Source: Platanthera guangdongensis (Eukaryota > Streptophyta > Magnoliopsida > Asparagales > Orchidaceae). From it: 64,000 bases of DNA. Under the pieces are notes generated by a model. That model was not told the DNA's origin and did not search any database. It saw nothing but the letters and a program-made list of their open reading frames with translations. The position numbers were made by a program, and so were the translations under genes. Below, one piece after another: positions 11,858-60,139 of this stretch. The stretch's first letter is position 1. Each line of letters starts with the position of its first letter. The DNA lies in NCBI GenBank assembly GCA_039583875.1, contig CM077166.1, positions 77,106,564 to 77,170,563 on the forward strand. Direction: 5' to 3'.

Positions 11858-11972
11858 GTACTCTAGTTAATTTTAAGTTTTCTCTTTCCTATGTAATTAG
11901 AGTTTTGGGTATAGAATTGATAAACTAGGAAAGAAAACAATAACTACAATACTAAGACATTAACTACCCCAG
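11858..11972 (+). other. Intron-like insert between G1 gag and protease (115 nt)
   Basis: It starts GTACTC after ACAG and ends CCCCAG before GCATAG. Removing it joins VIT, a split Gly codon, and IVFISGKPAY leading to the protease LFDTG, in frame (phase 1). Keeping it extends gag by 23 residues to a TAG at 11926. It is clearly AT-richer than its flanks. It contains a stem of TTTCCTA with TAGGAAA that F also keeps. Splicing itself is inferred. Confidence 0.8.
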
Positions 11973-13996
11973 GCATAGTCTTCATCAGCGGCAAGCCCGC
12001 CTATACACTGTTCGATACTGGTGATTCGCACTCGTTCTTGTCGGAAGCCTTCGTGGAAGGGATGGAAGGCATGGAGCGATTCACTGGTTTGATGATGAGG
12101 ATATGGATACCAGACGGATCAGAGCTATTCACCTCCGCCCACTGCAATATGGAGGCAGAGATCGACGAAAAGGCATTCGAAGTACCAACATCAATCCTAA
12201 CGATGCCAGTCTTTGATTTGATCCTGGGAATGACCTGGTTGCATTGGAACCATGCCCAGAGTGACTTCCTGTCAAAGAGGATCACCGTGAGGCATGGGGA
12301 TTCCCACATCGTCATCGAAGGTATTAGACCTATTCCACCTCTCTTGATGTCATCAGTGTAGGCCGTCAAGGCCCACTTGTAGGGGGAGGAAGTCTATGAA
12401 GTGATGTTTGAAATGGCTAAGGCCAAGGATTCCATCTCTGATATCCCGGTGGTGTGAGATTTTGCAGGCGTATTCCCAGAGAAGCTGTCAGGGCTACCCC
12501 CGCACCGGGAGCAGGATTTCGGATACAGTTGGTGCCAAGGGCTAAGCCGGCATCTAGAGCACCTTACCAGATGGCCCTGAAAAAGTTGACAGATTTTCGA
12601 AGCCAGCTGCAGGAACTAGTGGAAGCAGGATTTGTCCGGCCAAGAACTTCACCATGGTGAGCCCCGGTGCTATTCGTCAAGAAGAAGGACAGGATAATTA
12701 TATTGTGCATCAACTACCGAGCACTGAACCGATTGACAGTCCGGAATACCTATCCATTGCCATGGATAGATGAGATGTTTTATAAACTGGAGGGGGCGCA
12801 TTTATTTTCAAAATTGGATTTGAGGTCGTGATACTACCAGCTGCGGATCTAGGAGGAGGACATTCCGAAGACTGCCTTTAGTATCAGATATGGGTTGTTC
12901 CAGTTTACCGTGATGCCCTTCGGGCTCACGAATGCATCGTCGGCATTCATGAGCCTCCTGAACTGGGTGTTCGAGGAATATCTGGATGTGTTCGTCATTG
13001 TGTTTAATTATGAAATCCTCATCTACTCGAGGGTAGAGGAAGAGTACACACGACATCTGACGTTGACCCTAGAGAGACTGCGGTAGAACCAGCTTTATGC
13101 GAAGTTCAGCAAATGCCAATTCTGGTTGAAGGAGGTGTCTTTCCTAGGCCATATCATCAGTGGTGCTGGGTTGGTAGTGGACCCGACCAAAATTCAGGCA
13201 GTTCGGGATTGGTCGTAGTTGAAGTGGACCACAGACGTGTGGAGTTTTCTAGGACTTGTCGATTATTACCGGAAGTTCATGGAGGGATCTTCTCGTATTG
13301 CCCTTCCACTCACATCCCTGATGACGAAGGATGTGCCCTTTGTCTGTACCCCGCAGTGCGAGGTGGCTTTTTAGGAGCTGAAAGATCGACTCACCTCAAC
13401 TCCTATACTTGCCCTTCCTTCGGGGAAAGAGGGATTCCAGGTCTACACCGATGCTTCCTACCAGGGTTTGGTTCAGTGCTGATGCACAATGGTCATGTGA
13501 TAGTGTACGCCTCGCGACAGCTGAAGAAGCATGAGCAGAACTACCATGTTCATGACTTAGAGATGGGAGCGGTCGTATTTGATCTGAAAGTCTGGCAGCA
13601 TTATCTGTACGGTGTCCACTACGCCATATACTCTGACCATAAAAATTTGAGGTATGTGGACATGCAGAAGGAGATAAATATCAGTTAAAGACAATGGGTG
13701 GAGTTTCTAGCAAATTACCTGTACGAGATGCACTACCACCTAGGGAAGGCGAATGTGGTGGCAGATGTGCTGAGCCGGAAGGCTACGACCTTAGGAGCAG
13801 GACCTTAGATGATGGCCATTGAGTTGGTCCAGATGTTAGACAAGATGCAGATATCCCTGGTGTCCGAGGATCACCCAGAGCTGTACCGGGAGTACCTATC
13901 GTCGTTGGTTTCCACAGATGACATTCGAGACAGAGTCAGAGATAGGCAGAGGCAGGATGCCAAGCTAGAACCGATATTCTGGGCCTTAGAAGTAGG
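11973..13996 (+). pseudogene. pol: G1 pol fragment (protease, RT, RNase H; integrase deleted)
   Basis: Protease LFDTG lies at about 12008, followed by HSF and the ILGM block near 12228. The RT core is recognisable (KKKD, FTVMPFGLTNA near 12900, then FVIVFNY where DD is expected). The RNase H block HERN/HDLEMGAVVF and the SDHKNLRY motif follow. Many in-frame stops are present, most at former Gln, Arg or Trp codons. A one-base loss near 12515 shifts the frame. The coding part ends at the start of integrase and passes directly into the 3' LTR at 13997, so integrase and chromodomain are deleted. Confidence 0.82.
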
Positions 13997-14169
13997 TGTA
14001 ACATCCCATTTCCAACTAGACCACTAAGAGTGTTTTTGTCATGACTAGGTCTTGACAAAACCCTAGGAAGCTTAAGAAGACCAAGTGAGCTTAGGCATGA
14101 AGTTGGAAATCATCATGGTCGGCAAATAGTAGAATTCTAAATAATAGTTTAGGATGACCATGGGGCTAC

Positions 14170-57639: not shown

Positions 57640-59288
57640 TGATGCGCTCTCAGCAAGTGTGTCGATCGCTATCAAGTAATAAAAGTGAGAAGTTTAATCC
57701 TCTGATATCGATCTCTCGAGGAGTGCACGTAGGGAGTGTGGTTTTGCTATTGGAAAAGTGATTGCAAGTGTTAATGTGGCAAAGGGGGTTTAGTTTTGGT
57801 TTCCTAAGCTTAATGCTAATAAAACTAATGTGGGTCGCCATCATCGTGTCGCTTGGGTGGTTTACTACGGAGAGTAGTATGGACGATAGACGAAACAGCG
57901 AGGGTCGCAATCACCTCATCGCAATGCACGCTCCTAGCAAGCGATAGAACGGCTTGATCACAACAAGCACAATAAAAATTGAAGCTTAACAACACGAGCA
58001 ATGATTAAGACAACAACATATTGACATGCTGAAACCTTAAACAAAACATTGTTCTCAAGAAATAATCCCACTATCACAAGTTCAGAATGAAGTAACCACA
58101 AGAAGAGGTGGATAAATACAACCGAGCGCACAAAGGCTTTCCGAGATTCACAGCCGGATTTAAGGGTTGTCAATCCTTGTCCGAGCTCGGTCTTCGGATG
58201 TCATCCGGGACCCAGAAGGGCTATCACCTCCTCCCTATAACCCGTCTTCTTCGTGTTTGATTGTTGGGCTAGTTCTAACCGAAAAACTCCGCAAGTGCAA
58301 CAACAATGAGCTCGAATGATAGCTTGAACGTCGGAGAAGATGAAGGTGGATGGCGATGCAACTATTGCAAGTTTTCTGAGGAGAAATAGTGACTGGATCA
58401 ACTCTCCAAGGAGGAGAGAGAAAATGGCGGCTGGAGGCAAGTTTTCCCGCTCGGAGGAGCGGAAATGGCGGGGGAAGCGGAGCTGGATCCTTGGAAAGAG
58501 GAAATCTGCAACTTAAATAGAAAAGTCAGAAAAATTGGTCACGCACGGTTTGGCGCACGGCCGTGCGCAAACCATGCGATATTAACTTTCAGAATAGACC
58601 CGAGGAAGGAGATGCGTTGACCCGTGCGTTTTCCTTCACGCACGGGCAGTTCCGCCCGTGCGTGAAGACATCTCACGGGTAGCAACAAAGAGTTGGAAAA
58701 CAGAGTCATACATAAAACCGTGTGTTTTATTCACGGACGGGCGCTGCCGCCCAGGTGTGAACAAAGCGCACGATTAACCATAGAAGGCACAACTAAGAAA
58801 GCTACATGAAAACCACGCGTTTCCTTCACGCACAGTTTCGAAGAAATCGTGCGTCAACCGTGCGTGAGAAACGTCGAACTCAGCCCAACGAAATTCGTCG
58901 AGCTCGGCTCGATGTTCTTCCAGCAGACTAAAACACACGATTTCATACAAACCGTGCGTGAAAGAAACGCATGTCCGTGCATTTTCCTTAAGACAGATTT
59001 CCTGCCTTTGGGAAAAACCCACCACCTGCACAATAAAACCAAAACTGGAGCACAAGCTCCAATCAATAAATACTGTAAAGAAAATACCAGGAAAGAGCCA
59101 CGGGGAGCACCATGTGCATACCCCCAACAACAGAATGTGCAATTGCACACCCTCGGGCCAAAACCGTGCACAAAATGGTCCATGACCGAACGATGCATAT
59201 ATAACTGATATCATGTTGAAATGCAGTGCACGAGTGAGAAAACCAACCCAGATGAGTCTGAAAAACCCTATAAATATCAGACTCACCA
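57640..59288 (-). repeat. J 5' LTR (about 1650 bp)
   Basis: Sense orientation starts TGGTGAGTCTGA and ends GCGCATCA, giving TG...CA ends. A TATA-like CTATTTAAG lies at 58511-58520, just downstream in sense of the hairpin array. No gene. The outer edge is inferred from where F coding sequence resumes. Confidence 0.75.
58530..58875. repeat. CGCACGG/CCGTGCG hairpin array in the J LTR
   Basis: Several inverted pairs. The best is TTCACGCACGGGC with GCCCGTGCGTGAA around a 6-base loop near 58635-58667. Others centre on GCGCACGGCCGTGCGC near 58550-58570. Confidence 0.85.
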
Positions 59289-60023
59289 CTTGGGAGGACT
59301 TCAGGGCCGCAATGTTGGAGCACTTTGTTCCTTAGTCGGCCAGAGATGAGCTGGAAGACAGATTTCTACAGTTTTTGCAAGGCAACATGACGGTGGTGGA
59401 GTACCAACGGGAGTTCAATCATTTAGCCTGGTTTGCGGAATCCTATCAGCTAGATGAGGTCGGATACACCAAGAGGTTTTATAAGGGCCTGTGAGAGGAT
59501 CTGAGAGAGGCTCGACAGTTCATATCCGATGGACCTATACCTTGGATATTGGAGATGGCAAAGAGGATTGAGGCAGATTGGCACATGACTCGAGGCCGGA
59601 AGAGGCCAACAGAGGATCAGGGCCGGGGAGCCAGAAATGGTCAGCGAAGGGGTCGCATTGCTGATAAGAGAGATGGTAGAAGGGCAGAGGACCAACCTTG
59701 TTAGGAGGTGAGACAGGAGCCGAGGGAGCCAGTGGGAATGACTCTTCAACCTCTCCAGATTCAGGAGATGCAGAGACCCGGGGGTATGGAATATCCCCCG
59801 CCCGAGTGCTACTACTATAATCAGGTTGGGCATATCTGGAGAAAATGCCCCATGAGGGGTGCACCACTACCAGCACCACCGGCTGCCCCACCTGCACAGG
59901 AGTTTGGAGGTCAAGGACGTTGCCGAGGATGTGGATACCAGGGTGGAGACCGCAGGCAGGATAGTGAGCAAGTGTATGCCCTGGATCTGGCTCAACCTTG
60001 AAACCCAGAGCAAGTAATAACAT
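59289..60023 (+). pseudogene. gag: F gag, C-terminal half
   Basis: Begins at WEDFRAAMLEHFV, matching residue about 150 of the G1 gag. Stops replace Gln or Arg (TAG at about 59334, TGA at about 59491, TAG at about 59701, TGA at 59999). The zinc knuckle near 59806-59850 has its second Cys changed to Tyr but keeps the last Cys that G1 lost. It ends at VIT before the insert. Confidence 0.83.
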
Positions 60024-60139
60024 GTACGCCAGTTATTATAAGTTCTTTTCTTTCCTAAACAATATACTCAGGGATATAAAAATGTTAGAACTAGGAAGGA
60101 AACCCATAATTAGATTTCTAAAATATCTAACCACCTCAG
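60024..60139 (+). other. Intron-like insert between F gag and protease (116 nt)
   Basis: Starts GTACGC after ACAT and ends CCTCAG before GCATAG. It is homologous to the 115-nt insert of G1, much diverged, but keeps the CTTTCCTA...CTAGGAAGG stem. Removal gives VIT, then a split codon (now Cys instead of Gly) and IVFIN in the pol frame. Gag and pol are in different frames unless it is removed. Confidence 0.78.

What the first reader, a model, noticed from the sequence alone, without database searches (positions are those of the whole stretch)
11858..60139. The same GT...AG intron at the gag-protease junction in four Ty3/gypsy copies
Inserts at 11858-11972 (G1), 38438-38363 on the minus strand (H), 45269-45352 (D) and 60024-60139 (F) all interrupt the Gly codon of V-[IV]-[TS]-G after its first base. 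Each begins GT, ends AG and is AT-rich, with lengths 115, 76, 84 and 116 nt. After removal, G1, H and D all have exactly 16 residues from that Gly to the end of the protease D-[TS]-G; F has since lost 11 bp there. Unspliced RNA ends gag at once (H, D) or after a short tail (G1). Splicing would thus set the Gag to Gag-Pol ratio. Introns in Ogre elements and spliced gag RNA in BARE1 are known precedents, but I know of no described intron at this place in chromodomain elements.
Basis: partly seen in the sequence, partly recalled or inferred. Interest (0 to 1): 0.9.

Follow-up and report, generated by a model that had tools for sequence, protein, structure and literature searches.

The report
Orchid retrotransposons with gag–protease intron
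Several families of jumping elements in an orchid-like genome carry a tiny intron exactly between their coat-protein and enzyme genes, and dozens of genomic copies that lack exactly this intron indicate that cells splice it, so splicing could decide which proteins the element makes.

Summary
The four inserts are real and lie where stated. They behave as spliceosomal introns. Searching the whole 4.25-Gb source genome with each family's own flanks and a free gap of 0-30 nt found 32 (family D), 31 (H) and 4 (G1) copies without the insert. In 66 of these 67 the gap is 0, i.e. a cut exactly at GT and AG; one has one extra base. The same flanks with the insert give 947, 3568 and 346 places, so about 1-3% of exact-flank copies are intronless. 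A same-length exon control gives 0 in D and 2 partial, no exact, deletions in H. Intronless copies are scattered among intron-bearing ones (AU test against one clade: D p=5e-7, H p=0.013), and 24 of 24 that were read join gag and protease in one frame. The inserts are AT-rich, vary in length in all three phases and lack the exons' third-codon-position excess. Unspliced RNA would end Gag at or soon after the donor; spliced RNA encodes Gag-Pol. That this sets the Gag:Gag-Pol ratio is inferred; no RNA data were available. Nearest known: the Ogre intron, elsewhere in another clade.

The parts
11858..11972 (+). intron of copy G1 (115 nt, GTACTC...CCCCAG), phase 1 in the Gly codon of VITG; gag-frame tail of 23 residues counting the Gly (by eye)
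   Evidence: 346 genomic places with same flanks and a 100-130-nt insert, 4 exact intronless
38363..38438 (-). intron of copy H (76 nt, GTACGA...GTTTAG), phase 1 in the Gly codon of VVTG; gag frame stops after 3 residues counting the Gly
   Evidence: 3568 places with a 62-92-nt insert, 31 exact intronless
45269..45352 (+). intron of copy D (84 nt, GTTAGC...TTTTAG), phase 1 in the Gly codon of VISG; the donor itself makes an in-frame TAG
   Evidence: 947 places with a 70-100-nt insert, 32 intronless, 31 of them exact
60024..60139 (+). intron of decayed copy F (116 nt, GTACGC...CCTCAG), same family as G1; the base before the donor is T
38428..39528 (-). H gag reading frame (Retrotrans_gag PF03732, zf-CCHC PF00098) that runs into the intron and stops
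37743..38330 (-). H protease part of the pol frame (RVP_2 PF08284), downstream of the intron and of a TGA carried by this copy
35052..37742 (-). H pol frame: RT, RNase H, integrase, SH3_Tf2-1 domain
32615..42084 (-). H element with both LTRs, 32615-34918 and 39806-42084 (96.0% identical), target duplication CCCTC on both sides
45274..45852 (+). D protease frame (RVP_2); it is open through the 84-nt insert after the TAG, because the insert length is a multiple of three
10681..11205 (+). G1 gag piece (Retrotrans_gag, 23.3 bits, just under Pfam's cut-off of 24.1)

Best explanation
Each insert is a short spliceosomal intron (GT...AG, AT-rich, phase 1) between gag and protease of Tekay-like Ty3/gypsy elements. 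Best supported, from genomic copies alone: RNA of these families has been spliced precisely here, and such RNA was reverse transcribed and integrated, giving insert-free copies with gag and pol in one frame. Inferred: unspliced RNA, kept by intron retention, is translated to Gag (it stops at or soon after the donor) and serves as the normal genome; a spliced fraction gives Gag-Pro-Pol. The balance of splicing and retention would take the place of frameshifting as the control of Gag:Gag-Pol. Intronless copies arise again and again but stay at 1-3%, so they probably replicate poorly or spliced RNA is poorly packaged.
For: Precise excision: 31 of 32 insert-free D copies, 31 of 31 H and 4 of 4 G1 have a gap of exactly 0 nt where 0-30 was allowed. 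Insert-bearing places with the same flanks: 947, 3568, 346. Site specificity: a same-length stretch of exon 2 gave 0 in D and 2 partial deletions in H; partial insert deletions leaving 31-61 nt: 4 in H (not searched in D and G1). Repeated origin: at least 9 changes on the D tree (7 forced by well-supported branches) and 8 on the H tree (3 forced); one clade rejected, p=4.6e-7 and 0.013. Frame: 24 of 24 natural intronless loci (14 D, 10 H) read gag into protease in one frame, 15 of them with no stop in 83 codons; H intronless copies reach open frames of 1516 codons against at most 1170 in the 150 matches. Not coding: length mod 3 (0/1/2) is 59/21/20 of 100 listed D places and 16/21/63 of 100 listed G1 places; the exons' third-position excess is missing in the D insert and weak in the H insert. 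Plant-intron make-up: GC 31-32% against 47-55%. GT in 28 of 28 H and 44 of 45 D; AG in 28 of 28 and 40 of 45. Gag stop: 28 of 28 H after 3 residues, 40 of 45 D directly after the Gly. Spacing Gly to the protease motif is 17 residues, as in relatives that read through (by eye). The annotated Platanthera zijinensis gag P0121 ends VVTGTV, the same site in another assembly.
Against: No RNA was examined. One search found 150 uninterrupted matches, only 29 of which are known H intronless copies; the other 121 could be natively uninterrupted families, so some insert-free junctions could come from recombination with them. The two borders of the insert share AGG (H, D) or CAGG (G1), a 3-4-bp microhomology. 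In D 5 of 45 copies lack the gag-frame stop, and one (L059) has an open frame of 1334 codons at the protease. In H the insert's third position is slightly the most variable (0.067 against 0.042 and 0.053). The D donor GTTAGC is not the best plant donor (recalled).
Confidence: 0.86

Rival explanations
1. The insert is translated: Pol is reached by ribosomal frameshifting (H, G1) or stop-codon readthrough (D) and the insert is a linker peptide.
For: D's insert is mostly 84 nt with a single stop in the pol frame in 36 of 45 copies, and 5 of 45 have none in the gag frame, e.g. L059.
Against: Lengths in all three phases among places with intact flanks; no third-position excess in the D insert and a weak one in H, against clear excess in the exons; AT-rich make-up; precise GT/AG excision in 66 of 67 insert-free copies.
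Confidence: 0.04
2. The insert-free copies are not products of splicing but of DNA deletion by microhomology, or come from an ancestral uninterrupted lineage by template switching.
For: AGG (CAGG in G1) is repeated at the two borders; 121 uninterrupted matches of unresolved family exist; six of the 14 D intronless loci cluster together.
Against: Exactness in three families with different insert sequences; exon controls 0 (D) and 2 partial (H); only 4 partial insert deletions in H; insert-free loci lie scattered among close insert-bearing relatives in D and H.
Confidence: 0.1
3. It is a spliced intron but without a role in the Gag:Gag-Pol balance, a passively carried intron whose retention is accidental.
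For: No expression data; no test of function was possible.
Against: The intron recurs at the same codon and phase in three families with only 27-34% protease identity and is present in about 97-99% of exact-flank copies although it is repeatedly lost; the gag frame ends at once in 28 of 28 H and 40 of 45 D copies. Both suggest that intron-bearing copies are favoured.
Confidence: 0.25

Closest known systems
Ogre elements (Ty3/gypsy, Tat lineage) of pea and Medicago
   Same: A retained/spliced intron interrupts the polyprotein, and splicing in a subset of transcripts allows translation of the whole polyprotein (PMC6317226, passages; the original papers were not seen).
   Different: In Ogre the intron lies between gag-protease and RT-RH-INT, in a non-chromovirus lineage, in a region averaging 274 bp; here it lies between gag and protease, is 71-128 nt in the listed places and sits in Tekay-like elements. 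Precise genomic losses are found here.
BARE1 (barley Ty1/copia) 104-nt facultative intron
   Same: A short U-rich intron near the end of gag decides between Gag and Gag-Pol (PMC3735527, passages).
   Different: [quoted passage not shown] DNA copies of spliced BARE RNA could not be amplified from barley DNA, whereas insert-free copies are found here in the assembly.
EVD (Arabidopsis Ty1/copia) shGAG splicing
   Same: Splicing used to make Gag in excess (PMC12786077, passages).
   Different: A copia element; splicing removes the protease domain and the product makes Gag.
CRR (Gypsy element; recalled as the rice centromeric chromovirus)
   Same: A Gypsy element with spliced transcripts (named in PMC3735527, passages).
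   Different: There splicing removes rt and makes two ORFs; not a gag-protease intron.
Bianca elements (Ty1/copia)
   Same: Two ORFs separated by a short region, on average 172 bp (PMC6317226, passages).
   Different: Copia; splicing not reported in the passage that I read.
Tekay/Del chromoviruses of other plants
   Same: Domain order, RVP_2 protease, same spacing Gly to protease motif.
   Different: Proteins of other plants read across this junction, apparently without interruption (e.g. P0125, P0126, P0129, P0176; whether a predictor joined exons is not stated).

Membership tests
GT-AG (U2-type) spliceosomal intron | GT at the 5' end and AG at the 3' end conserved among copies | tested here: met
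   H 28 of 28 both; D GT 44 of 45, AG 40 of 45; G1: four non-GT starts seen by eye among 100 listed places, 3' ends not shown
GT-AG (U2-type) spliceosomal intron | exact removal joins the reading frame | tested here: met
   24 of 24 natural intronless D and H loci in frame across the junction
GT-AG (U2-type) spliceosomal intron | spliced RNA observed | not testable with these tools
   no RNA data; intronless genomic copies are indirect evidence
GT-AG (U2-type) spliceosomal intron | plant-type AT/U richness against exons | tested here: met
   GC 31-32% against 47-55% in D and H
Ogre-type intron | intron between gag-protease and RT of a Tat-lineage element | tested here: not met
   the insert lies between gag and protease; Tat lineage not tested on a tree
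Tekay/Del chromovirus | Ty3/gypsy domain order gag-PR-RT-RH-INT | tested here: met
   Pfam domains in H
Tekay/Del chromovirus | chromodomain after integrase | tested here: inconclusive
   no Pfam Chromo hit in H or D up to E=10; a tail that I recall as chromodomain-like is present, broken by a stop, in H
Tekay/Del chromovirus | place in an RT tree with reference elements | not tested
   no reference set was used; the assignment rests on recalled motifs
BARE/EVD shGAG splicing | spliced RNA encodes Gag only | tested here: not met
   insert-free copies join gag to protease

The most novel reading that the evidence does not exclude
A lineage of plant Ty3/gypsy elements has long used retention versus splicing of one tiny intron, placed exactly between gag and protease, as its Gag/Gag-Pol switch. 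The unspliced RNA is both Gag message and genome. Spliced RNA is repeatedly reverse transcribed into intronless copies that lack the switch and mostly die out, so selection among copies keeps the intron against recurrent loss.
Probability: 0.5. Interest if true: 0.82.

Novelty: new variant of a known kind. Interest (0 to 1): 0.72.

Why it matters
Most plant LTR-retrotransposon groups encode the whole polyprotein in a single ORF (PMC6317226, passages), and how such elements make more Gag than Pol is, as far as I recall, settled for only a few. Here one short intron offers a simple answer for an abundant family (at least 3599 exact-flank H places) and two others, and the natural intronless copies make the idea testable. 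It also gives a rough natural measure of how often spliced RNA ends up as a new copy (about 1-3% of copies, if copy number reflects it), and a caution for annotation: such elements look like broken two-frame copies, or have gag annotated as a separate gene (P0121).

Tried and rejected
Frameshift or readthrough with a translated linker: rejected on length phase and codon positions. Chance GT...AG: rejected by the copy numbers and precise losses. Sequence homology of the introns between families: none beyond shuffles except G1 with F (z 9.3; the five other pairs between -0.5 and 1.1), so common origin rests on position and phase only. Viral contigs (IMG/VR): no relatives. P0123, which I first took for an intron-ending gag of another orchid, reads on into exon-2-like residues and is not evidence for an intron; Dendrobium gene models cannot tell, because annotation may have joined exons. 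I saw no description of an intron at this place in those listings and passages; most subscription papers are not held, and the Ogre splicing paper was not held.

Rows dropped and biases: L063 from the trees and insert counts (no exon 1); L070 and L082 from the careful trees, so 13 of 14 intronless D loci are in that tree; L070, L082, L080 and L012 from the codon-position count; L063 and L070 from the identity table. The quick trees hold 59 D and 38 H loci out of at least 979 and 3599 exact-flank places. Intron-bearing loci are best protein matches to the window copies, and the 40 loci were picked by hand, those of D partly for long open frames; 20 intronless loci (10 of 32 D, 10 of 31 H) were picked by hand and had exact flanks by construction; so the 4 of 50 intronless D loci are no rate. 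The AU tests were run after I had seen the quick trees, and the D bootstrap had not settled. No G1 loci other than the window copies were read at length, and no G1 tree was made.
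Full report
What was checked. The four inserts are at the stated coordinates with the stated lengths and GT...AG ends. They lie in the Gly codon that ends V-[IV]-[TS]-G, after its first base, in G1, H and D; in F that base is now T. Counted by eye, 17 residues lie from the Gly through the protease motif D-[TS]-G in G1, H and D, the same spacing as in plant relatives that read across this point (P0002, P0009, P0027; P0125, P0126, P0129; P0176; whether any of these predictions joined exons is not stated).

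Source. The window is G000:C20:77106564-77170563 of a 4.25-Gb assembly. H has both LTRs, 32615-42084, 96.0% identical, and a CCCTC target duplication, gag (PF03732, zf-CCHC), protease (RVP_2), RT, RNase H, integrase and an SH3_Tf2-1 domain. No Pfam chromodomain was found in H or D; the placement as Tekay/Del rests on recalled motifs.

Is it spliced? The strongest evidence is natural. Among the 50 D loci read, four (L014, L028, L071, L076) lack the insert, cut between CAG and the base after the terminal AG (L028 has one changed base there). I then searched the whole genome with each family's own flanks and a free gap of 0-30 nt. D: 32 places, 31 with gap 0 and one with gap 1. H: 31 places, all gap 0. 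G1: 4 places, all gap 0. With the insert, the same flanks give 947 (gap 70-100), 3568 (gap 62-92) and 346 (gap 100-130). Intronless shares are therefore 3.3%, 0.9% and 1.1% of places with exact flanks. Reversed patterns gave 0 in each of the nine pattern searches. A stretch of the same length inside D exon 2, with flanks exact in 29 of 44 copies against 26 of 44 for the junction, gave no deletion. The same control in H (flanks exact in 28 of 28 against 24 of 28) gave two partial deletions and no exact one, and the H insert itself shows four partial deletions leaving 31-61 nt. So precise loss at GT/AG is well above the local deletion background.

Were these copies ever intron-bearing? Trees of the flanking pieces put intronless loci among intron-bearing ones: at least 9 changes in D (13 intronless, 44 intron rows; 7 changes forced by well-supported branches) and 8 in H (10 and 28 rows; 3 forced). 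Holding the intronless rows as one clade is rejected, p-AU 4.6e-7 (D) and 0.013 (H) (quick trees; the D bootstrap had not settled). In H the label is about as scattered as in shuffles (133 of 500 as low), consistent with independent losses that did not spread; in D it is partly clustered (10 of 500 as low), and six intronless loci that fall together suggest some propagation. In 24 of 24 intronless loci read (14 D, 10 H), gag runs into protease in one frame; 15 have no stop in 83 codons and 9 have one or two. H intronless copies have open frames of up to 1516 codons, while none of the 150 best H protease matches, among which at least one is intronless, exceeds 1170.

Is the insert coding? Insert length mod 3 (0/1/2) is 59/21/20 in 100 listed D places and 16/21/63 in 100 listed G1 places. 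Nucleotide diversity by codon position 1/2/3 is 0.089/0.080/0.164 (D exon 1), 0.085/0.065/0.144 (D exon 2), 0.025/0.017/0.105 (H exon 1) and 0.010/0.015/0.055 (H exon 2), but, in the gag frame, 0.174/0.087/0.134 (D insert) and 0.042/0.053/0.067 (H insert): a clear third-position excess in the exons, none in the D insert and a weak one over 21-22 sites in the H insert. GC is 31-32% in the inserts and 47-55% in the exons. The gag frame stops after three residues in 28 of 28 H copies and directly after the Gly in 40 of 45 D copies; five D copies have no gag-frame stop in the insert. L059, with donor GTAAGC, has a 1334-codon frame at the protease, consistent with reading through the in-frame 84-nt insert; so readthrough of single copies is possible but is not the family rule.

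How it most likely works. Best supported: RNA of three families was spliced exactly here and reverse transcribed. Inferred: unspliced RNA makes Gag and is the normal genome; spliced RNA makes Gag-Pro-Pol. If the intron were neutral, recurrent loss should in time have removed it; instead about 97-99% of exact-flank copies keep it and it sits at the same codon and phase in families with 27-34% protease identity. This argues for selection for the intron or for poor packaging of spliced RNA.

Limits. No RNA was available. One search, a junction-spanning query, returned 150 uninterrupted matches (a capped list), 29 of them among the 31 known H intronless copies and none among the 32 D copies. The remaining 121 could be H copies with changed flanks or natively uninterrupted families; I could not read them. 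If uninterrupted families are common, template switching with them could account for some insert-free junctions, though not easily for exactness in three families with family-specific flanks. The borders share AGG or CAGG, so deletion by microhomology is not excluded for single copies. The introns of the three families show no sequence similarity beyond shuffles, so one ancestral gain is likely but unproven.

Comparison. Ogre splices an intron between gag-protease and RT-RH-INT (PMC6317226 passages). BARE1 splices 104 nt so that only Gag is expressed, and DNA copies of its spliced RNA could not be amplified from barley DNA; CRR splices out rt (PMC3735527 passages). EVD makes shGAG by splicing (PMC12786077 passages). 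Alternative splicing of sunflower elements is reported in PMC7730604 (passages). The seven answered paper searches named in Tried and rejected did not turn up a gag-protease intron in Tekay-like elements. I therefore rate it a new variant of a known kind.

Noticed in passing
G000 places listed: 121 further uninterrupted gag-protease junctions (of 150 in a capped list; 43-51% identical to a Dendrobium-type query), four with open frames above 1450 codons, not among the exact-flank intronless H copies; their family is unresolved.
   Followed up: partly
L059 (D family), junction region: A D copy with donor GTAAGC instead of GTTAGC lacks the in-frame TAG and has a 1334-codon open frame at the protease, as if gag, insert and pol were one frame.
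   Followed up: partly
L079, L084-L088 (D family): Six intronless D loci fall together with one intron-bearing locus (L013), as if an intronless lineage had multiplied.
   Followed up: no
window 28715-30513 and 42082-43850: Two 95.8% identical stretches lie on either side of the H element, as if H sits nested inside another LTR element.
   Followed up: no
window 1-1525 and 7558-9121: LTR-like pair (93.2%) around a separate retroelement with a 1069-codon pol-like frame (1872-5081) and gag-like frames on the minus strand; short GAATCGGCGAGAATC-type units repeat there and at 20666, 29862 and 43230.
   Followed up: no
P0121 (Platanthera zijinensis KSP39_PZI007980): An annotated 'hypothetical protein' is an H-type gag (75% identical) that ends VVTGTV where the intron begins, i.e. 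what looks like an intron-retention form annotated as a gene.
   Followed up: yes
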